From: a virus | DNA: 38,326 bases | IMG/VR virus record: IMGVR_UViG_3300032286_000905 | Coordinates: 1 to 38,326 of that record | Direction: 5' to 3' (one strand) | Shown here: positions 1-38,326 of the stretch, piece by piece | How the letters are laid out: every line of letters begins with the position of its first letter | How positions within the stretch are numbered: the first letter of the stretch is position 1 | Translations under genes and position numbers: made by a program | Notes under the pieces: model-generated | What the model was told of the DNA's origin: nothing | The model's input: the letters and a program-made list of their open reading frames with translations, nothing else | Database searches by the model: none

Positions 1-14
1 GATTGACTCAAACA
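1..14. repeat. 14-base direct terminal repeat, left copy
   Basis: GATTGACTCAAACA opens the window and is repeated exactly as its last 14 bases. The repeat lies about 110 bases before the small terminase gene, where cos sits in lambda-like phages. It may be a cohesive-end sequence, a short terminal redundancy, or the overlap left when a circular assembly was cut open. The sequence alone cannot separate these. An inverted 11-base copy lies at 38080-38090. Confidence 0.85.
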
Positions 15-123: not shown

Positions 124-669
124 ATGGCACTAATAAATAAATCTGCATTCGCTCGAAGAATTGGAAAAGATTCTAGAATTGTAAGACGACTTGCAACTGA
201 AAAAAGAATTAAAGAAAATGGCGATGGCATGATTGATACGGATCATCCACTAACCAAAAAATATTTAGAATCTATTGAAGAGACAAAAAAGAATACTAAG
301 ATTTTAGATATTGAAGAAAAAATTAATTCGTATGCCAGTCTTGAAGACCAAAAACTACAAGCTGAAATACAATTAAAACAAGAACAAGCTTTGGCAGTAA
401 AAACAAAACGTGCTCAATTACTTGGAATATTAATTCCTCGTAGTACGGTAGATCAAAAACTTTCCAAACTAGCGGAACAAATTTCCGCAAATATTCTTAC
501 GATACCAAGAAAGGGAACATCTCAAAGCCTGGCAATTATCCAAGCAGAATTGGAAAAACAAAATATTGCATTCGACGTAAGACAAGTAAAGGTAAAACTC
601 GAAACGGTTTGGAGAGAATTAGTATCCAAAGCATTAGAAAAAGCAAAGAACGGTGAAAGTGATGATTGA
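124..669 (+). CDS. terminase small subunit (probable)
   Basis: A 181-residue protein, charged and rich in Lys, Gln and Glu, with a DNA-binding-like N-terminus (residues 1-30, NKSAFARRIGKDSRIVRRL, resembling a helix-turn-helix) and a coiled-coil-like middle. It overlaps the large terminase gene by a few codons and is the first gene of the head operon, the position of lambda Nu1. It would recognise the packaging site and load the large subunit. No ribosome-binding site precedes the ATG. The assignment rests on position, size and the HTH-like start, not on a strong family motif. Confidence 0.7.
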   Translation: MALINKSAFARRIGKDSRIVRRLATEKRIKENGDGMIDTDHPLTKKYLESIEETKKNTKILDIEEKINSYASLEDQKLQAEIQLKQEQALAVKTKRAQLLGILIPRSTVDQKLSKLAEQISANILTIPRKGTSQSLAIIQAELEKQNIAFDVRQVKVKLETVWRELVSKALEKAKNGESDD

Positions 670-20820: not shown

Positions 20821-21876
20821 TTATTTTAATTTTTTGTAGTAAAGTCTTCTAAATTTTGATACGTTTATTAGATTCTTTTCTTTTATTTGATTAAAAATCT
20901 CAGGATCTTTTTCTTGTAAAGTTTTAAGGCTTAAAGATTCCCTTTCAGATTCCGAACAGGTAACCAACACATCTCCGTTGGGTGTTTGCAATCTTGTATT
21001 ATTTCCGATTAATAAACCGATAGAATTATCAATATCGTCAATTTCTTTTTCTTGTTCTTTTATCTTAGATTTTAAAATTTCCCTTCTCTCTAAAATGTCT
21101 GACAATTGTATTCTGTTATTTAATTTTTCATCCAATTTAATTATAGAAGCATTTTCTTGGATTACAGGAAACATTTTTACTATGTCAGACCATAATTCAA
21201 CTTTGGGGGGTATTTTATTTTTTACGTTATACATAAAAATATCTGATAATTTACTTATACTATCTATCGTATTATTATCAATTTTTCCCATTCCGTATTC
21301 TCTGTAATCCGAGGTATCAATCAATGCAGAAACCCCAGCATTATGTATGCCATACAATTTCATTTGAAATTGAATTTGTAAATATACAGATAATGGAACA
21401 CCTTCAAGTGTTCGTATCTCATTAGAATAACCAAATTCTCCAGACTCATCAATTTTACTTGCAAACAGTCTTAAAGACTTGGCTTCTTGAATTGAATAAG
21501 ATTTGTCCGAATGCCTTACAACTAAATCAGCGTGTGCTACATAGTCATCTTGCTCGGCTACTGTATTGCTATGAAATTCAAATCCATCGGCTTTAAATTT
21601 GTTTTTACCCTGTAATCTTTTAATGATCCATTTATCGGCAATTTCCTTTGTAGTTAAATTTTCTATATACTTGTATAGTATATTAATTTCGTGCCTATGC
21701 CCCCAATAGGTGGCTTCGTTACCTTTAAAGCCATCGACTAAATTAAGTTTTTCTTGCCATAGGGAATATGTAGATTTTCCGTATTTCAAATTTAAACCTG
21801 CCAAGGTAGGAATATCGGATGATCCAAGTTTACCTTTTCTCTCTCCATGAAAATCGTCTATGTATTTCAATTTCAT
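20821..21876 (-). CDS. YqaJ-like viral exonuclease
   Basis: A 351-residue lambda-exonuclease-fold protein. Motifs in order: GSSDIPTLAG, TYSLWQEKL, EATYWGHRHEINILYKY (metal-binding Glu), DDYVAHADLVV (Asp) and YSIQEAKSL (Glu-x-Lys). It would chew one strand of duplex ends to give substrate to RecT. The C-terminal third is coiled (RREILKSKIKEQEKEIDDIDN), as in the YqaJ group. The ATGA overlap with the PC4-like gene ties the three genes into one recombination cassette. Confidence 0.88.
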   Translation of the reverse strand: MKLKYIDDFHGERKGKLGSSDIPTLAGLNLKYGKSTYSLWQEKLNLVDGFKGNEATYWGHRHEINILYKYIENLTTKEIADKWIIKRLQGKNKFKADGFEFHSNTVAEQDDYVAHADLVVRHSDKSYSIQEAKSLRLFASKIDESGEFGYSNEIRTLEGVPLSVYLQIQFQMKLYGIHNAGVSALIDTSDYREYGMGKIDNNTIDSISKLSDIFMYNVKNKIPPKVELWSDIVKMFPVIQENASIIKLDEKLNNRIQLSDILERREILKSKIKEQEKEIDDIDNSIGLLIGNNTRLQTPNGDVLVTCSESERESLSLKTLQEKDPEIFNQIKEKNLINVSKFRRLYYKKLK

Positions 21877-22067
21877 AAAACAATCTCATTAACGGTTCTT
21901 ACGAATTCATTCCATAATTCCAATTTTATCGTAATACCATCTTTTGACGGAAACCATTCAGAATTGTCTTTTGTATACCATTTCCGTATACCTACAAATT
22001 CATGCCCTTTATACTCAGATTTCTCAATTCTGTATTCGTTGGTGTCGTTTATTTTTATTTTTTTCAT
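21873..22067 (-). CDS. PC4/p15-like single-strand DNA-binding protein
   Basis: A 64-residue protein, MKKIKINDTNEYRIEKSEYKGHEFVGIRKWYTKDNSEWFPSKDGITIKLELWNEFVRTVNEIVL. YKGxEFVGIRKWY, then SEWFPSKDGITIKLELW, is the pattern of the PC4/YdbC family, a small dimer that binds single strands. The start at 22067 has GGAG six bases before it. Lying upstream of YqaJ and RecT, with no other SSB recognised, it may act as the phage ssDNA-binding protein; that is inference. Confidence 0.78.
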   Translation of the reverse strand: MKKIKINDTNEYRIEKSEYKGHEFVGIRKWYTKDNSEWFPSKDGITIKLELWNEFVRTVNEIVL

Positions 22068-22079
22068 TGTCATCTCCAA

Positions 22080-23814: not shown

Positions 23815-24195
23815 TTAATATTTTTTGATTAAAATTTTACTACCATCAAATTTTGTTTCCCAAGCTTCTCCCCCTGAAATTCCAATAAACTGTAAAAAAT
23901 TTAATTGCTCTTTGGATAATCTATCGTTTTTTGTTTTTATTTCGTTAGCCCAAAAAATAGCCAAAATTTTACCAAGATGCTCTTCTGTTATGCGTATCGG
24001 TAAAAATCCTATAAGATCACTTGCCCCAATAATCAAACCAGATTTTAACGGTCTTGGATTTCTAAGATGTAAAACATTATTATTTTTAGAAATAATCTCA
24101 CCTTGCCAAGCTAAACCAGATTGATTTCTCCATAATCGTCCCCCTAGTTTAGTAGCCTGTAATCGGGCATAAGCCAAAATTTCTGATTCTGTCAT
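23815..24195 (-). CDS. VRR-NUC domain nuclease
   Basis: A 126-residue nuclease of the PD-(D/E)xK class. RLWRNQSG at the start, GASDLIGF (metal-binding Asp) and FWANEIKTKNDRLSKEQLNFLQFI (Glu-x-Lys, then Gln) give the full VRR-NUC signature. The size is normal for phage stand-alone forms, which are linked to Holliday junction or flap cutting. It starts in the ATGA overlap with the HTH gene and lies next to the SF2 helicase, with which such nucleases often travel. Confidence 0.87.
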   Translation of the reverse strand: MTESEILAYARLQATKLGGRLWRNQSGLAWQGEIISKNNNVLHLRNPRPLKSGLIIGASDLIGFLPIRITEEHLGKILAIFWANEIKTKNDRLSKEQLNFLQFIGISGGEAWETKFDGSKILIKKY

Positions 24196-24365
24196 TTTTT
24201 CGATTCCATTATTTTTTTTCGTTCTTGCATATCGTCATACAGATTAATAACGGATGTCTTACAATAATAACCATGAGCAAGTTTTTTAATTTTTCCACTT
24301 GATACCAATTCGTAAATTCTTGTAAAACTTAATCCAAGATAATCAGAGACTTCTTTTAGATTCAT
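24192..24365 (-). CDS. small helix-turn-helix protein, excisionase-like
   Basis: A 57-residue protein, MNLKEVSDYLGLSFTRIYELVSSGKIKKLAHGYYCKTSVINLYDDMQERKKIMESKK. The layout VSDYLGLSFTRIYELVSSGKIKK is a MerR/Xis-type winged helix-turn-helix. It overlaps both neighbours (23 bases upstream, ATGA downstream) and has AGGT before the ATG. It may be a regulator or a DNA-bending replication factor. With no integrase in sight, excision is unlikely to be its job. Confidence 0.72.
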   Translation of the reverse strand: MNLKEVSDYLGLSFTRIYELVSSGKIKKLAHGYYCKTSVINLYDDMQERKKIMESKK

Positions 24366-24965: not shown

Positions 24966-25370
24966 TTATTTCCTTTTAATATTAGCATCGACCCAAATCT
25001 TCGGATACCATCGTTTTTTTATTGCTCCAACCTTAAAAGGTGCATCCATTTTTTTTAAAATATTATGAGCATGCGAAATAGTTCTTCCCATAATTTGTGC
25101 AACATCATCTAGGCTATAAGATGATTTTTTTACTTCGTCCGAAACGTCATTCGCTTTTGCGTATTTCTTCGCAATTGGATTGGAACGTATCGACAATCTG
25201 TAATTCAATTCGTTAGATAAATCCTCTATTTGTTTTTTGTTATACCAATATTTGTTATTCATATAAACTTCTTCAATTTTATTTTTTTTAAATATTACAT
25301 GAATTGTTTTATGATTTTGAAAATAAGTCATAGCTTCTTTTCTTGTTATGTAGTTTTCAGGGTTTTCCAT
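24966..25370 (-). CDS. DNA-binding protein with a C-terminal helix-turn-helix (probable)
   Basis: A 134-residue protein. ITRKEAMTYFQNHKTIHVIFKKNKIEEVYMNNKYWYNKKQIEDL looks like a MerR/Xis-type DNA reader, and YSLDDVAQIMGRTISHAHNILKKMDAPFKVGAIKKRWYPKIW is a second HTH-like module with a basic wing. The start at 25370 has AAGGA six bases before it; ATG 25376 abuts the ribosome site. It lies just downstream of the helicase-methyltransferase gene. A regulatory or replication role is inferred. Confidence 0.6.
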   Translation of the reverse strand: MENPENYITRKEAMTYFQNHKTIHVIFKKNKIEEVYMNNKYWYNKKQIEDLSNELNYRLSIRSNPIAKKYAKANDVSDEVKKSSYSLDDVAQIMGRTISHAHNILKKMDAPFKVGAIKKRWYPKIWVDANIKRK

Positions 25371-25416
25371 TTTCATTCCTTTTAAAATCTTTTTAGTATT
25401 CTATGATCTATTAAAA

Positions 25417-27948
25417 TCATGCTATTTTTTCCATCTCAAACAATGTAGGTGCGGTTATGTTTTCAACTATTAATTTATTATAGAAAATTGAATCTTTGTA
25501 ATACTCAATATTTAATTCTATTCCTAAACCTTTTCTGCCCATTAAAACAGATTTATACGTAGTACTCCCCAAACCATTAAAAGGATCTAAAACAATTTCA
25601 TCTTTCATGGAATATCTATTTATTAATCTCTCTATAATGTCTAATTGTAAAGGGCAAATATGTTTTTCTTTTTTGTTGGATACTTGCCTAGCGTTTAAAG
25701 TGTTCATTCTATTAACATCCGTCCATACTAAATCATTATTAGAGTGAACTGGTAAAGTTTGATATGTAGATGATAATCTTTCTAAATTATCTAAATCTTT
25801 ACATATTTCTAAATGTTCTTTATAGCTATAAATAGATTTTTTATTATGGATTTTCCATCTAGATACAATTTCCTTTACTGTATATTTTTTTAATTCTTCA
25901 AAGCTTAAAAGTCTATCTCCATTTGATCTGTAATACGCATGAGCATCCAATTGCCATTGTGCTTTAGAATATTCATCTTTTGTTTTATTTACAGGTGTAT
26001 CACTATAAGAATTATCATTTGATGAAGGTGGTTTTCTAAAAATCAAAACATATTCAGGTAAACCTACACCCATTTTAGAACCATCTTTAGTTTGCTCTGT
26101 CCATCCAAGTCTATAAGTTTGATTATTCTCGGCAACAACATCCGTTGTAATAATAATTTTACCAATTAAAAAAAATCCATGTTTTTCAAAACTCATAACA
26201 GTTTGACCAGAGAAATCCGATATTGTTGTAAATGATGTTCCGTTTTGGTATGAATATTTTATTCGATCTTTAACGTGTATACATGCTATTCTACCAGGTT
26301 GTAATACTCTGTAAAGGTTAGGTATTAAATAATCCATCTGTTCAAAGAATTTACCGTTCCCATGGTTATGACCAAAATCATTGTAATTATCTGAATATTC
26401 ATAATGATCCCCAAACGGAATTGAAGTTAAAATTAAATTTACAGAATCATTTTTAAATTCTTCCTTATCTTGCAATGCAATTACATTATCATTGTTATAC
26501 AGACTTACCAATCCTTCCCCAAGTATAACTTTATTATTATTTTTAAAAATTTGTCTTTCCATTTGGCTTTTAATTATCTCCTTATTTAACCCATACTTTT
26601 TAACTAATTCAATCATTTGAAAATTTAGCTCTTTATGATTTTTCCATTTTTCTTTTAATGTTTTTATAATTTCGGTTTCCGCAACCGTATAAATAATATG
26701 AACATTTACTATTTTTTTTTGCCCAAATCGATATTGTCTATGTATAGCTTGAATAAAATCATTAAATTTATAATCTATACCACAAAATATCATATCACTC
26801 GAAGCATCTTGAAAGTTAGATCCTGACCCAGCTATTTCAGGTTTTGTTAGTAAATATTTATATTTACCTTCCGAAAATTCTATAATATTTCTTTCCTTTA
26901 AATCGTTTTTTTGACTACCATAAACAGAAACATAAGATTCACCTTTTAGAGTTTTTTCTAGTAAATATCTTTCGGCTTCTAAATTATGCCATAGTATCAC
27001 ATTTCCTTCTATATTTTTTGCGATCTCAATAGACTTTTCAATCCTGTCATATATAGAATCTCTTTTTTCTCTGGATACTTCTATAAGACCAGACTTAGTT
27101 ATATTCTTTATTAAAATCCTTTCTCCAAATTTATCATACAATTCTTTTTTAGTATTTGTTGAAATTACATGCTCTATAATATTTAAATCAGGTAAATCGT
27201 ATCCAGTAGAATCATAACCATAATCAGCAGGTGTATTTATAAACGCTGCCCACGTAGATACCCACTGCCAAAACTCTTCTTTTTTATTTTCATACAATTT
27301 TAAGTTTCCAGCTTTTTGAGAATCTCTTTTGAAGAATCTTGTCAAAGCGTGACCCCTTGAAATTACCCCTAAAAAATCGGCATAGTTTAAAATTTCTATG
27401 TAATCGTTAGGCGTAGGCGTAGCGGTCGCAACTATTCTGTATTGCAAATTCTTGAAATGATTTAAAACGTAATTTGTTGTTTCGGTTTGTAAATTTCTAA
27501 TAATAGAAGCTTCATCCATTGATACTCCTATAAAACTATTTGCGTCAATGTTTCCCATTCTTACACGTTCATAATTTGTAATATAAATTTGAGGAGGTTT
27601 ATTTTTATTAATAGAATCGGTTTCTTTTATATATTGTATTTCGATTCCAGTATTTAATTTTAAATTATCTCTTTTAAATTCTCCTGACACACCTAGAGGA
27701 CATACAATTAAAAAACTTTTATTATAGGTTTTTATTAATTGTTTGGCTATTTCTAATTGCATAAACGTCTTACCTAATCCAAAACTTGCAAATATAGCCC
27801 GTCTCCCCCCTTCTATGCAAAAATTTACAATATCTTTTTGATGTGGATAAAGGTTTTCTGAATATTCTAAATTGTTTATTAAATCTTTACTCATTCCAAA
27901 ACTTTCAGCGACTACAACTTTTTTCTTTAAAAACTCTTCATATTTCAT
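25417..27948 (-). CDS. SNF2-like helicase fused to a DNA methyltransferase
   Basis: An 843-residue fusion. The N-terminal half is a superfamily 2 translocase: ASFGLGKTFMQLEIA (Walker A), VSMDEASIIRN (motif II), VATATPTPNDYIEI (III), and IHRQYRFGQKKIVNVHII (VI). The C-terminal half is an amino-methyltransferase: LTSIPFGDHYEY (motif IV) and DPFNGLGSTTYKSVLMGRKGLGIELN (motif I). TSIPF is the form seen in other phage helicase-methylase fusions. No nuclease domain and no long target-recognition domain are visible, so it probably modifies rather than restricts. The start is 27948, after GGAG. Confidence 0.88.
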   Translation of the reverse strand: MKYEEFLKKKVVVAESFGMSKDLINNLEYSENLYPHQKDIVNFCIEGGRRAIFASFGLGKTFMQLEIAKQLIKTYNKSFLIVCPLGVSGEFKRDNLKLNTGIEIQYIKETDSINKNKPPQIYITNYERVRMGNIDANSFIGVSMDEASIIRNLQTETTNYVLNHFKNLQYRIVATATPTPNDYIEILNYADFLGVISRGHALTRFFKRDSQKAGNLKLYENKKEEFWQWVSTWAAFINTPADYGYDSTGYDLPDLNIIEHVISTNTKKELYDKFGERILIKNITKSGLIEVSREKRDSIYDRIEKSIEIAKNIEGNVILWHNLEAERYLLEKTLKGESYVSVYGSQKNDLKERNIIEFSEGKYKYLLTKPEIAGSGSNFQDASSDMIFCGIDYKFNDFIQAIHRQYRFGQKKIVNVHIIYTVAETEIIKTLKEKWKNHKELNFQMIELVKKYGLNKEIIKSQMERQIFKNNNKVILGEGLVSLYNNDNVIALQDKEEFKNDSVNLILTSIPFGDHYEYSDNYNDFGHNHGNGKFFEQMDYLIPNLYRVLQPGRIACIHVKDRIKYSYQNGTSFTTISDFSGQTVMSFEKHGFFLIGKIIITTDVVAENNQTYRLGWTEQTKDGSKMGVGLPEYVLIFRKPPSSNDNSYSDTPVNKTKDEYSKAQWQLDAHAYYRSNGDRLLSFEELKKYTVKEIVSRWKIHNKKSIYSYKEHLEICKDLDNLERLSSTYQTLPVHSNNDLVWTDVNRMNTLNARQVSNKKEKHICPLQLDIIERLINRYSMKDEIVLDPFNGLGSTTYKSVLMGRKGLGIELNIEYYKDSIFYNKLIVENITAPTLFEMEKIA

Positions 27949-27977
27949 TTTTATCTCCATGCTATTTTTATTTATTT

Positions 27978-30560
27978 TTATTCCTCATCAATATATTTTT
28001 TCTTAAATTTATTCCAATCAAACAATCTTACAGATTGCTTGTGTCCAGCTACTCTTCTCTGAACACAAGTTTTCTGTGTAGTGCAAAAATCATTTCGTTT
28101 AATTTGTGCATCGTAATTTTTTTCGAATGTGGTTCCATTTAGCATTTTTGTAATACTTGCATTTTTTTTGCAAATCATTACAATATTTTCTTTTTCGCTT
28201 AGTTTTATCCCGTTTCTTTCCAACTCTTTTCTTTCACTCGAATCATGCTCATAATTTGTAAGTATTTCGGAAACTGTAAGACGTTTTCCCAGTTCCATAT
28301 TAATAGAATAACCTAAAATATTTTCGATAACAGAATCTTCATCTGGATTAAGTGTTTCTTTTTCCTCATTTAAATATGATTCCCATTTTTTAAAAAATTC
28401 AATTCCTTCTTTGCTATTTTGTATTTCATTGTCATTAGTAAGATGCCATATAGACGCTATTATTGGACTCCAATTGTCAGCTTCTCTTTGATTTCCTGTA
28501 ATACTTAAAAAATATTCTGATAAAAATTGAATGTCTTTTGTAATTCGTTCAATCCGATTAAACATTCTTTTTCTAAATTTTTCAGGGTTTTTTAAGCAAT
28601 TAATCCAGACTTTAGAATCCTTTTTTTTGTTTTTTGTAAATTCTGCTAGTTCTTCATTCGGAACGCTTTTTAACTCGGCTCTTAGTATTCTACTATCAAT
28701 AGCATGGTCAATTTGTGGAGGTTGATCCGAGGAAAAACAAAACATTGACCGTACTACAAAAAGATCGACTCCCCCGTCCCTCGCTGTGACTGCTCTAATC
28801 GCTGAAATGTCACTACTTGCATCACGTGCTAAATTTAACTTTTCATAGATTTTATTTTCGTCGTTTTTAACAGTAATTTTCATTTCATCTAATATAATCG
28901 GTAAGGCTGTATTTCGTACCGACCGTCTTACAGCTGATTCGGTTGATCCTCCAGACCCTTTAAAAACAAAGCTACCTAATAGTCTTTCCATAAGATTTTC
29001 TAAAACGTAACTTTTGCCAGTTCCCTTTTTTCCCTCGATCCAAATATGAGGACGCCATGTTAATGCTCCAGCCATAGGGGCAATCAATGACCATCCAAGA
29101 CATGCCAAACCTGATTTTTTAGAAACCCATTTTTGGGAATCAAACAAACCTTGTAATTGCAATCCATCGGCGTAATCTGATTCTTTTTCTCCGAGTTCAT
29201 CGAATGTAATACTACTTGAAACATAAAAATATTTACTTTTAAATTCGTGATATTCCAATTTTTTACCATTCGGAAATTCTAAACAAGATCCAGTATTTAA
29301 AACAAATTTATCATCATCCCTCCAAACTCCCGTCCCTCTAATTTTTAAAGAATCAAACCTACCAATTTCTTGTGATTTGGTTTGAATCCAATCCTGTGCT
29401 TGTGTGACTTTTATGTTACCATGAGGCGAAACAAAATCACAGATTGACCAAAACGCTAACGGTGCAAGCTGTAAAATTTTGGAAGACGTAAATCCAGATC
29501 TTGCAATACTAACTACAATTCGTTCTTTTGTAAGTAAAAAATAATGTAAATCGTCCGAGTATCCAAGAAATCTAAAAAACTGTTCTTCCATATTTTTATT
29601 ATTATTATTTATTATTTCTGTTTTACCTGTTGAAAATTCAGGTGTAGTATTTATAATTTCAAGTAAATCTAACTTCTCTTTTTCGGCGTCGACTATGTCC
29701 CAACCATCTTTTTTGTCAGACAATTTGTAAACATCCAAAACCTTACCATGACCCAAAATTCCCTTTATTCCGAGCATAGCTTTTATTCCAGGCTGTTCAT
29801 GTTTTTCTAATTTTGGTTTCGTGTCACGATCGGGCCATAATATTACTTTTCTATTTTTTAAAGGTGACCAATCTGTCTTGTCATACGCTTGACTTCCTCC
29901 CAGCCACGACACAACTATATAGCCATTTACGTTAACGATTCCACAGGTTTCTCCTTCGACTACTAATACGGGTAAATCAGGGTTTTTGGGTAGTTCATCC
30001 AATCCAAAAATAGGAAAATTATCGCTATATGGTCGGCCCGATTCCCATTTATTTTTTTCGGAATAATAAAAAGGGATGGTTTGTTTAGTATTATTTTTTT
30101 CGAATCTAACGACTACAAATTCGGTTTTATTATTTCTCGAATAGGAAAAATAAGATTTAGGATCTCCAAATTCGTTTATAAAAAAATCACTGCTTACGTA
30201 GTTTTTAATCGTTTTTAATTTATCGTCCGGAATAGGAATTATTGCTTTGCCCTTTTCTATTTTTGGTTTTGATTTTTTTGGAGTGGTAGTCTGTATTTCA
30301 TTGGCTATCAATTCAGCGGATTCTTTCAAAGATATATTCTTAGATCGAGATACCAAATCTATAAAATCTCCTCCCTCATTAGTAGCATGATCGTAATACA
30401 TGCCATCTTTGGAGATATGGAATGAATTTGGTCTTGAATCCGATCTCAATGGGGATCTTATCCAATACTCTTTATTTTTCCATTTTCCACCTGGAAACAG
30501 CTTCTCTATCGAATAGGTATCAATCCTATCCTTGGCAATCTCGAAAATAGTTTTATCCAT
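27978..30560 (-). CDS. primase-helicase with a degenerate zinc-finger domain
   Basis: An 860-residue replication protein. Residues 34-70 have the framework of a primase CHC2 finger (SPLRSDSRPNSFHIS, then YYDHATNEGGDFIDLV), but Cys and His ligands are replaced. A TOPRIM domain follows: VLVVEGETCG (VEGE 201-204) and LWPDRDT (DRD 244-246). The C-terminal half is an AAA+/SF3-like helicase with Walker A GKKGTGKS (510-517) and PIILDEM. It would prime and unwind at the fork. It starts directly after the stop of a 56-residue gene. Confidence 0.86.
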   Translation of the reverse strand: MDKTIFEIAKDRIDTYSIEKLFPGGKWKNKEYWIRSPLRSDSRPNSFHISKDGMYYDHATNEGGDFIDLVSRSKNISLKESAELIANEIQTTTPKKSKPKIEKGKAIIPIPDDKLKTIKNYVSSDFFINEFGDPKSYFSYSRNNKTEFVVVRFEKNNTKQTIPFYYSEKNKWESGRPYSDNFPIFGLDELPKNPDLPVLVVEGETCGIVNVNGYIVVSWLGGSQAYDKTDWSPLKNRKVILWPDRDTKPKLEKHEQPGIKAMLGIKGILGHGKVLDVYKLSDKKDGWDIVDAEKEKLDLLEIINTTPEFSTGKTEIINNNNKNMEEQFFRFLGYSDDLHYFLLTKERIVVSIARSGFTSSKILQLAPLAFWSICDFVSPHGNIKVTQAQDWIQTKSQEIGRFDSLKIRGTGVWRDDDKFVLNTGSCLEFPNGKKLEYHEFKSKYFYVSSSITFDELGEKESDYADGLQLQGLFDSQKWVSKKSGLACLGWSLIAPMAGALTWRPHIWIEGKKGTGKSYVLENLMERLLGSFVFKGSGGSTESAVRRSVRNTALPIILDEMKITVKNDENKIYEKLNLARDASSDISAIRAVTARDGGVDLFVVRSMFCFSSDQPPQIDHAIDSRILRAELKSVPNEELAEFTKNKKKDSKVWINCLKNPEKFRKRMFNRIERITKDIQFLSEYFLSITGNQREADNWSPIIASIWHLTNDNEIQNSKEGIEFFKKWESYLNEEKETLNPDEDSVIENILGYSINMELGKRLTVSEILTNYEHDSSERKELERNGIKLSEKENIVMICKKNASITKMLNGTTFEKNYDAQIKRNDFCTTQKTCVQRRVAGHKQSVRLFDWNKFKKKYIDEE

Positions 30561-30731
30561 CTATCTTTTATTCGATAAATGTAATTTTAAAGCTTGTTCG
30601 GTAAAACTATAAATATTTATACCATTAGTATCGCAATATTCTTTTATTTTATCATGTAGATCATTATTTATTTTTATAGTTTTTTGTTTAGCCCATTGCG
30701 GATAGTAGTATTTCTTTTTATCAGTTTTCAT
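30561..30731 (-). CDS. small ribbon-helix-helix-like protein
   Basis: A 56-residue protein, MKTDKKKYYYPQWAKQKTIKINNDLHDKIKEYCDTNGINIYSFTEQALKLHLSNKR. KTIKINNDLHDKIKEYCDTNGINIYSFTEQAL has the strand-helix-helix pattern of Arc/CopG repressors. The stop touches the primase ATG. The ribosome site GGAATTTATAA precedes it. A DNA-binding regulator of the replication operon is plausible but not shown. Confidence 0.6.
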   Translation of the reverse strand: MKTDKKKYYYPQWAKQKTIKINNDLHDKIKEYCDTNGINIYSFTEQALKLHLSNKR

Positions 30732-36629: not shown

Positions 36630-37115
36630 ATGAAATCAAAATTTTTTGAATTTTTTAAAACTAAAAGGCTAAAACTTAGCCTAGTAATATTTTTCGGAAC
36701 TATTGGAGTAGTATCCAATTATTCAGCTCTCAAATATTTTCTTGGTCAAACACGTATGGATTTTATTGGATCTGAATTCAGTCTTACAATCTATGCTATT
36801 GGTATCACTATGGCTCTCGATGTGAGTATTATTGTATTTCATCTTGCAAGGATCTATGGTTTAATGTTCGGATCTGCTTTACTTGCATTTATGATTTCGC
36901 TCGGTGCAAATACTACTACGTATTTTGCTTGTGCCGGATCTTGCAAAAATGCCCTGGATGATTTCGGAACGATAGTAATGTTTAGTCAATCGTTAGTTAT
37001 GTCTGTATTACCAATTATTATAATAGTTTATTTAACGGAATTGGCTGTAAAACAATATGATTCTGAAATTGAGGAGGTTTATAAAAATTCTTGGCAGGAT
37101 ATTAAATTAGATTAA
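36630..37115 (+). CDS. four-helix membrane protein, moron candidate
   Basis: A 161-residue protein with four transmembrane helices at about 16-38, 52-73, 77-100 and 115-138, a basic N-terminus and an acidic C-terminal tail. FACAGSCKNALDD between helices 3 and 4 has two Cys that could pair. It is the only + strand gene in the right half and has its own putative promoter and terminator, the usual form of a lysogenic or exclusion moron. No family is recognised. GGAG precedes the ATG. Confidence 0.66.
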   Translation: MKSKFFEFFKTKRLKLSLVIFFGTIGVVSNYSALKYFLGQTRMDFIGSEFSLTIYAIGITMALDVSIIVFHLARIYGLMFGSALLAFMISLGANTTTYFACAGSCKNALDDFGTIVMFSQSLVMSVLPIIIIVYLTELAVKQYDSEIEEVYKNSWQDIKLD

Positions 37116-37121
37116 TTATAT

Positions 37122-37170
37122 AATTGCCCTGTAATACCTAGACTACATATCATAGTATTATAGGGTAATT
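37122..37170 (+). terminator. terminator after the + strand membrane gene
   Basis: Left arm 37122-37137 (AATTGCCCTGTAATAC) pairs over 16 bp with 37155-37170, loop 17, followed by TTT. In the + strand RNA the two non-Watson-Crick pairs are G-U; in the - strand RNA they become A-C mismatches. The hairpin thus favours stopping rightward transcription, although the holin gene converges on it. Confidence 0.72.
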
Positions 37171-37171
37171 T

Positions 37172-37390
37172 TTAAACATATCCCTTATCTTGTATTTCAG
37201 GATCCTCTACAAAAAAATTAGTCATGCCCTTTCCAATCGTCCCGATCAATATACAAACCAAAGCCAACCATTTTTCATCCATAACAACAGCGTATCCAGT
37301 CAAAAACTGCGACATACCTAGTAATGCATCACCAAGTTTTCTAAAATTCTTTGGTGTAGGCTTGTAATACCCATTTATATCAAATTTCAT
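37172..37390 (-). CDS. holin-like membrane protein
   Basis: A 72-residue protein. YYKPTPKNFRKLGDALLGMSQFLTGYAVVMDEKWLALVCILIGTIGKGMTNFF holds two hydrophobic segments (about 21-36 and 42-58), with a charged C-terminus. The style is like small phage holins annotated beside lysis genes. It overlaps nothing and follows the other holin-like gene by one base. It would release the hydrolase, though the two lie about 2 kb apart. Confidence 0.62.
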   Translation of the reverse strand: MKFDINGYYKPTPKNFRKLGDALLGMSQFLTGYAVVMDEKWLALVCILIGTIGKGMTNFFVEDPEIQDKGYV

Positions 37391-37391
37391 T

Positions 37392-37595
37392 TTATTTTAC
37401 CTTAATCAGTAATTGTTTTACGTCTGCTTTTATTTCTCGAAGCTCATCTTTAATTTCTTGGACTATTCTTCTATCTTGTTGGGTTTCACTTTCTAACTTA
37501 ACAATACGTATTTCATGGGTATAATATGCGACTGACAAGGAAACAATAAAGCTTCCGTATGTCAGAATATCTTTAAAATCAAATTTAAATTCCAT
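37392..37595 (-). CDS. second holin-like or lysis-associated membrane protein
   Basis: A 67-residue protein: one transmembrane helix (about residues 11-26, LTYGSFIVSLSVAYYT) and a long coiled coil (EIRIVKLESETQQDRRIVQEIKDELREIKADVKQLLIKVK). TM plus coiled coil is common in holin partners and XhlA-like proteins. No clear ribosome site; an A/T-rich -10-like TATAAA lies about 20 bases upstream of the ATG. Confidence 0.58.
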   Translation of the reverse strand: MEFKFDFKDILTYGSFIVSLSVAYYTHEIRIVKLESETQQDRRIVQEIKDELREIKADVKQLLIKVK

Positions 37596-37749: not shown

Positions 37750-37762
37750 CTGTCCCAGTTTT
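37750..37762. repeat. inverted repeat CTGTCCCAGTTTT, left arm
   Basis: The reverse complement is exact at 38061-38073. The arms lie 298 bases apart and enclose the A/T palindrome. Confidence 0.8.
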
Positions 37763-37780
37763 TGACGTTTTCGGATGTAA

Positions 37781-37874
37781 AACTATCCAAAAAACTAGAC
37801 AAAATAAATCAATAAAATCAATGTTTTTTGTATCTCAAAAAATAACTAGACAGCAACTATCCATCAACTATCCA
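37781..37874. repeat. iteron cluster, left (five AACTAKMCA copies)
   Basis: AACTATCCA at 37781-37789, 37855-37863 and 37866-37874; AACTAGACA at 37793-37801 and 37844-37852. All are in the same orientation. Spacings of start points are 12, 51, 11 and 11 bases, that is, close to one helical turn for neighbours in a pair. Confidence 0.75.
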
Positions 37875-37901
37875 AAGAAAAATCCCATTTTTCCCTTATA
37901 T

Positions 37902-37931
37902 TATATATATATTTTATAAAATATATATATA
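37902..37931. repeat. 30-base perfect A/T palindrome
   Basis: Arms 37902-37916 and 37917-37931 pair fully, centre TTTTATAAAA. Every base is A or T. It would melt or extrude easily and lies at the centre of the iteron region. Confidence 0.8.
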
Positions 37932-38045
37932 TATATATAGTAAAAAACATGGATATAAATATATTCCTTTTTATATAAAAAAAAGTTAAAATCAAAATTT
38001 ACGAAATACAATATATTAGTTATAACAGCTCGCAAGGTATTTTTC

Positions 38046-38158
38046 AACTAGCCAGCCTGTAAAACTGGGACAGCATCAATTTGAGTCAATAGAATCAATG
38101 GTAAAGGTGGCTAGTTTGCGTTAGACACCATGGATAGTAAAACTAGCCAACTAGCCAC
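38046..38158. repeat. iteron cluster, right (four AACTAGCCA copies, one inverted)
   Basis: AACTAGCCA at 38046-38054, 38141-38149 and 38149-38157, with TGGCTAGTT at 38108-38116. GTGGCTAGTT (38107-38116) and AACTAGCCAC (38149-38158) make a 10-bp stem over a 32-base loop. Confidence 0.75.
38061..38073. repeat. inverted repeat AAAACTGGGACAG, right arm
   Basis: Right partner of 37750-37762. Confidence 0.8.
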
Positions 38159-38312: not shown

Positions 38313-38326
38313 GATTGACTCAAACA
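38313..38326. repeat. 14-base direct terminal repeat, right copy
   Basis: Identical to bases 1-14; see the left copy. Confidence 0.85.

What the first reader, a model, noticed from the sequence alone, without database searches (positions are those of the whole stretch)
37750..38158. Candidate origin with a new iteron family AACTAKMCA
Nine copies of a 9-base repeat (AACTATCCA x3, AACTAGACA x2, AACTAGCCA x3 direct and x1 inverted) surround a 44-base pure A/T run with a 30-base perfect palindrome, and a 13-base inverted pair encloses the core. A 15-base near-direct repeat (37809-37823 and 38086-38100, one mismatch) also links the two sides. No gene fits here. This is the layout of an iteron origin, yet no Rep protein is recognised, so the primase-helicase or one of the small DNA-binding proteins may read it.
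Basis: partly seen in the sequence, partly recalled or inferred. Interest (0 to 1): 0.74.

Follow-up and report, generated by a model that had tools for sequence, protein, structure and literature searches.

The report
Phage replication origin beside packaging site
A conserved non-coding stretch next to the packaging (cos) end of an uncultivated tailed phage carries two groups of short repeats around the most easily melted DNA in the genome, the layout of a replication origin otherwise described as special to phage satellite islands.

Summary
Nine exact AACTAKMCA copies, plus a tenth with one mismatch, flank the least stable DNA in the genome; no gene fits. (1) The window is probably a complete phage genome: both ends are GATTGACTCAAACA and relatives begin or end at the same place, so the region sits about 155-565 bp from a 14-nt cos end, opposite the terminase genes. 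(2) Two 97-99% relatives keep all nine repeats at identical spacing, and their few changes fall on the degenerate K/M positions. (3) A divergent relative (75-83% protein identity) keeps the layout and AT core but carries different repeats (TRRGAC, 11 copies versus 0.9 expected). One feature survives unchanged: a pair of CAATARAATCA boxes, one per side. Best reading: a two-cluster iteron origin, like that of phage-inducible islands (PICIs/SaPIs), read by the phage's primase-helicase and/or the ribbon-helix-helix protein encoded beside it. The two HTH proteins are unlikely readers because the divergent relative lacks them. Origin activity is inferred, not shown; the host is unknown; the 30-bp palindrome is not conserved in the divergent relative. 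Membership of the PICI family fails on gene position.

The parts
37750..38158 (.). whole candidate origin region (two repeat clusters, AT core)
37750..37762 (+). left arm of the 13-bp inverted pair CTGTCCCAGTTTT
   Evidence: arm kept in G002 and G005
37781..37789 (+). repeat AACTATCCA
37793..37801 (+). repeat AACTAGACA
37809..37823 (+). left conserved box TCAATAAAATCAATG (CAATARAATCA kept in all relatives that hold this side, including divergent G004)
37844..37852 (+). repeat AACTAGACA
37855..37863 (+). repeat AACTATCCA
37866..37874 (+). repeat AACTATCCA
   Evidence: the five left repeats share one helical face
37896..37996 (.). AT core, least stable 50-bp and 100-bp segment of the genome; contains the 44-bp pure A/T run 37896-37939 and the 30-bp palindrome 37902-37931; proposed unwinding element
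38046..38054 (+). repeat AACTAGCCA
38061..38073 (+). right arm of the 13-bp inverted pair AAAACTGGGACAG
38080..38100 (+). right conserved box TTTGAGTCAATAGAATCAATG; its first 11 bases equal the inverted cosN sequence
38108..38116 (-). repeat AACTAGCCA, inverted
38131..38139 (-). tenth repeat TACTATCCA, one mismatch, inverted
38141..38149 (+). repeat AACTAGCCA
38149..38157 (+). repeat AACTAGCCA
38313..38326 (+). right-hand copy of the 14-nt end sequence GATTGACTCAAACA (cos)
1..14 (+). left-hand copy of the 14-nt end sequence (cos)
124..669 (+). terminase small subunit; considered as reader, judged unlikely
30561..30731 (-). RHH1, 56-aa ribbon-helix-helix protein (Arc/Omega-like), directly upstream of the primase-helicase; candidate reader
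27978..30560 (-). primase-helicase (CHC2 finger, Toprim-like DUF6371, SF3/D5-like AAA+ core, Pfam matches below cut-off); candidate initiator

Best explanation
The region is the phage's replication origin, built as two clusters of short iterons around an AT-rich unwinding element, and placed beside the cos packaging end. Shown from sequence: the repeats, the AT core, the conserved box pair, conservation in relatives, and the adjacency to cos. Inferred: a phage initiator binds the iterons on both sides (the primase-helicase itself, or the RHH protein encoded just upstream of it, or both together), the AT core melts, the helicase loads there and primes, and forks leave both ways; almost all genes point away from the region and converge near 19.98 kb, roughly opposite it. 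The box pair, unchanged while the iterons diverge, would be read by a more slowly changing partner, perhaps the primase-helicase, whose ATPase core is 92-100% identical even in the divergent relative. Packaging would later cut at cos a few hundred bases away.
For: Repeat cluster far above chance and first in a blind genome scan. All nine repeats and their spacing kept in G002 and G005; repeat columns 87/89 identical versus 282/320 elsewhere in the region, Fisher p 0.004, with the changes at the degenerate K/M positions. AT core is the least stable segment of the genome, and likewise in the held parts of G005; in G004 the homologous 50 bp is also the least stable 50-bp segment. Divergent G004 keeps two flanking clusters with a different repeat, TRRGAC: 11 sites versus 0.87 expected, at most 5 in any window outside, 6 of 11 falling on window iteron columns (shift test p 0.04). 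CAATARAATCA boxes kept on both sides in G004. Left repeats lie on one helical face (p 0.0025). The genome encodes a primase-helicase with an adjacent RHH gene, and RHH1 is one of its faster-changing proteins (44% in G004, with changes in the predicted DNA-contact strand). PICI origins are described as always two iteron sets flanking an AT-rich region (PMC6092414).
Against: No functional data exist. No recognised iteron-type Rep, and no near-match to a DnaA box within 37750-38158. The primase-helicase gene is 7 kb away, unlike PICIs. Its C-terminal part is no more diverged in G004 than the rest, so it does not visibly track the iteron change. Non-coding GC skew changes sign across the core in the window and G004 but not in G002 and G005. 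The region also lies upstream of lysis genes on the left and the terminase genes on the right, so regulatory sites are expected there too. The G004 repeat was partly found by eye, and a rival pattern elsewhere in that genome scores nearly as high; fixed 6-mers and 7-mers did not rank the G004 region first. The structure model of the primase-helicase failed.
Confidence: 0.62

Rival explanations
1. A transcription-control region: the repeats are operators for a phage regulator (for example RHH1 or RHH2) controlling divergent promoters toward the lysis genes (left) and the terminase genes (right).
For: The region lies between leftward lysis genes (holin) and the rightward terminase genes; RHH proteins commonly bind repeated short sites (established for Omega, CopG, Arc). 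Operator sequences often change with their repressor.
Against: Ten sites over about 380 bp on both sides of the least stable DNA in the genome are many for a simple operator. Promoter-like sites are no more frequent than in shuffles (9 versus 7.6). The same lysis cassette in other phages (G007-G010, 83-87% for the membrane protein) has no paired iterons. No iteron copy lies by the RHH1 promoter, where autoregulation would be expected.
Confidence: 0.17
2. A packaging element: repeats bound by the terminase small subunit, a displaced cosB/cosQ-type site that helps cutting at cos.
For: The region ends about 155 bp from cosN; the right box repeats the inverted 11-base cosN sequence TTTGAGTCAAT, also in G004.
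Against: In lambda cosB lies between cosN and the small terminase gene; here the repeats lie on the other side. The small terminase of G003 is about as diverged from the window's (131/180) as that of G004 (122/181), including its N-terminal HTH, yet G003 keeps AACTAKMCA repeats and G004 does not. In G002, G003 and G005 the cosN-like 11-mer in the right box is imperfect. A large AT core has no known role in cos cutting.
Confidence: 0.12
3. A partition centromere read by an RHH protein of the ParG/ParR type.
For: RHH1's best structural match, though weak, is ParG; partition centromeres are arrays of short repeats.
Against: No ParA-type ATPase (CbiA family) in this genome or three relatives, control positive in 14 of 14 genomes; no integrase and no sign of a plasmid prophage state. 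ParM-type ATPases were searched only through PHROGs.
Confidence: 0.05

Closest known systems
Origins of phage-inducible chromosomal islands (PICIs, including SaPIs)
   Same: [quoted passage not shown] replication module with a primase and an SF3/D5-type helicase initiator.
   Different: Here in a full-size cos phage; the region is beside cos and about 7 kb from the primase-helicase gene instead of directly 3' of it; additional conserved box pair; no evidence of integration or helper dependence.
Satellite phage P4 origin (ori1 and crr, alpha protein)
   Same: From memory: repeated iterons in both orientations around AT-rich DNA, initiated by a primase-helicase fusion that binds the iterons.
   Different: In P4 the two elements are far apart; here both clusters flank one core; no sequence relation was tested.
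Iteron plasmid origins (Rep_3/RepA type)
   Same: Tandem 9-bp repeats, left ones about one helical turn apart, next to AT-rich DNA.
   Different: No Rep_3 protein, no DnaA-box near-match in the region, repeats on both sides of the AT core.
Lambda-type cos region
   Same: 14-nt identical genome ends and a gpA-type large terminase gene just downstream.
   Different: Repeats are on the side away from the terminase genes and far larger in extent than cosQ/cosB.

Membership tests
[quoted passage not shown]
   description in PMC6092414
PICI/SaPI-type origin | located immediately 3' of the replication initiator gene | tested here: not met
   primase-helicase is at 27978-30560, 7 kb away; neighbours of the region are a holin gene and the terminase genes
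PICI/SaPI-type origin | iterons bound by the C-terminal domain of the cognate SF3/D5-type Rep helicase | not testable with these tools
   helicase core recognised only weakly (RNA_helicase PF00910 and DUF5906 below cut-off); structure model unusable
PICI/SaPI-type origin | region plus initiator drives autonomous replication | not testable with these tools
   needs a plasmid assay
Iteron plasmid origin (Rep_3) | Rep_3 initiator encoded | tested here: not met
   no PF01051 match in four genomes, control positive
Iteron plasmid origin (Rep_3) | direct repeats about one helical turn apart beside AT-rich DNA | tested here: met
   spacings 12, 11, 11 bp in the left cluster; phase p 0.0025
Iteron plasmid origin (Rep_3) | DnaA boxes in the origin | tested here: not met
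   no TTATNCACA with up to one mismatch in 37750-38158
Lambda-type cos packaging region | short cohesive-end sequence shared by both genome ends | tested here: met
   14-mer at both window ends; contig G005 has the same with a matching change of the 14th base; G004 begins and ends with it too; G002 has one copy at the joined junction
Lambda-type cos packaging region | terminase-binding repeats between cosN and the small terminase gene | tested here: not met
   the repeats described here lie on the opposite side of cosN; whether other repeats in bases 15-123 serve was not examined further
ParA-type partition centromere | ParA ATPase encoded | tested here: not met
   no CbiA-family match in four genomes, control 14 of 14

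The most novel reading that the evidence does not exclude
A two-code origin fused to the packaging end: fast-changing iterons are read by a small RHH adaptor, unchanging CAATARAATCA boxes by the conserved primase-helicase, and a cosN-like copy inside the right box lets terminase and initiator compete, linking replication to packaging.
Probability: 0.1. Interest if true: 0.75.

Novelty: new variant of a known kind. Interest (0 to 1): 0.47.

Why it matters
[quoted passage not shown] Finding it in a free-standing cos phage would weaken that as a mark of PICIs and hint at a phage source for such replicons. A relative pair with the same layout but different iterons gives a ready test of which protein reads them. 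The adjacency to cos also raises whether initiation and packaging interact.

Tried and rejected
Prophage relatives in bacterial genomes: two genome scans with terminase and primase alignments found none, so the host is unknown. Named phage records: no DNA match to the region. Scanning viral contigs for the cos sequence returned mostly chance matches plus the known relatives. Scanning for the box pair returned 36 loci, three of them this family, nearly all the rest coding and unrelated. Structured RNA: no Rfam match. tRNA: none found. AlphaFold of the primase-helicase failed (pLDDT 38). Hairpin telomere reading of the palindrome was dropped: the palindrome is absent in G004 and the genome ends lie elsewhere. 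RHH1 homologues in other contigs (L161, L163 and similar) are next to tail genes, not primases, and gave no help. GC skew as an origin test was set aside as confounded. The HTH proteins at 24192-24365 and 24966-25376 were set aside as common readers because G004 lacks both.

Full report
Setting. The window is one IMG/VR virus record of 38,326 bases. It encodes a contractile-tailed phage: gpA-type large terminase and small terminase, tail sheath and baseplate proteins, RecE/RecT, two helicases and a primase-helicase, ThyX and a holin. No integrase was found. Host unknown.

The record is probably a complete genome with cohesive ends. Bases 1-14 and 38313-38326 are the same 14-mer, GATTGACTCAAACA. 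Contig G005 (98% terminase identity) starts and ends with GATTGACTCAAACC, changed at the 14th base at both ends; contig G004 (83%) also starts and ends with it; in G002 a single copy joins the two sides. Three records ending at one place is what filled-in cohesive ends give. The region of interest is therefore about 155-565 bp to the left of cosN, with the small terminase starting at 124 on the other side.

The observation. Every element described is present. In a blind scan of degenerate 6-mers the region ranks first in the genome. A tenth, one-mismatch repeat exists at 38131. The five left repeats fall on one helical face.

Conservation. G002 and G005 hold all nine exact repeats at identical spacing. 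G003, a short contig, keeps the right cluster. These relatives are close, so the test is modest.

The divergent relative. G004 (terminase 83%, primase 75%) lacks AACTAKMCA here but has 11 TRRGAC sites where 0.87 are expected, and at most 5 in any window outside. In the blind scan TRRGAC is the best pattern that is not self-complementary, though TMKGGG elsewhere is nearly as strong (8.68 versus 8.58), and fixed k-mers did not rank the region first. Six of the 11 sites fall on window iteron columns (shift test 0.04). So a concerted change of repeats with kept positions is supported, not proved. The CAATARAATCA box pair is kept on both sides (37810 and 38087 in the window; 38017 and 38308 in G004). 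The AT core is the least stable 100 bp of the window and the least stable 50 bp of G004, although the 30-bp palindrome is lost in G004.

Who reads the repeats. A reader common to window and G004 must be encoded in both. The HTH genes at 24192 and 24966 are not found in G004. The small terminase differs from the window's about as much in G003, which keeps the repeats, as in G004, which does not. This leaves the primase-helicase, RHH1 and RHH2. RHH1 (56 aa, gene abutting the primase-helicase) resembles Arc/Omega-type repressors, has helices placed as in the RHH fold, with weak structural matches to ParG, CopG and Arc, and changes at predicted contact positions in G004. The primase-helicase ATPase core (about residues 481-640) is 92-100% identical, and its C-terminal part about average.

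Mechanism. Most likely an origin: initiator binding on both flanks, melting of the AT core, helicase loading and priming, bidirectional forks. Nearly all genes run away from the region and converge at 19.98 kb, roughly opposite, which fits but is common in phages anyway.

Comparison with what is known. [quoted passage not shown] SaPI Rep and Cch2 helicases bind such repeats through a C-terminal domain (PMC7581432). The layout matches; the position next to the initiator gene does not, and binding is untested. It works like a PICI origin but is not filed as one. Rep_3-type and ParA-type systems are excluded as far as the searches go.

Verdict. A real, conserved, well-organised element; origin 0.62, transcription control 0.17, packaging 0.12, partition 0.05.

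Noticed in passing
1-14 and 38313-38326: The record is listed as linear without end repeats, yet both ends are one 14-mer that relatives share at their ends: a likely complete genome with a 14-nt cos.
   Followed up: yes
38080-38090: The 11-base inverted cosN sequence TTTGAGTCAAT recurs inside the right conserved box, also in G004; G002, G003 and G005 have imperfect copies.
   Followed up: partly
25417-27960: Helicase-DNA methyltransferase fusion, 96% identical in L044, but replaced by unrelated genes in the otherwise similar G004.
   Followed up: no
36630-37595: A membrane protein and holin cassette (membrane protein 83-87%, holin 78-88% identical) is shared with otherwise unrelated phages (L012-L015), suggesting a mobile lysis module.
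   Followed up: no
L030:1-580: G004 has several CGRYCG sites in the first 580 bases beside cos, not enriched in the window; possibly its own terminase sites.
   Followed up: no
21873-22079: Small protein matching phrog_4053 (transcription regulation); from its sequence it may be a PC4-like single-strand DNA binder next to RecE.
   Followed up: no
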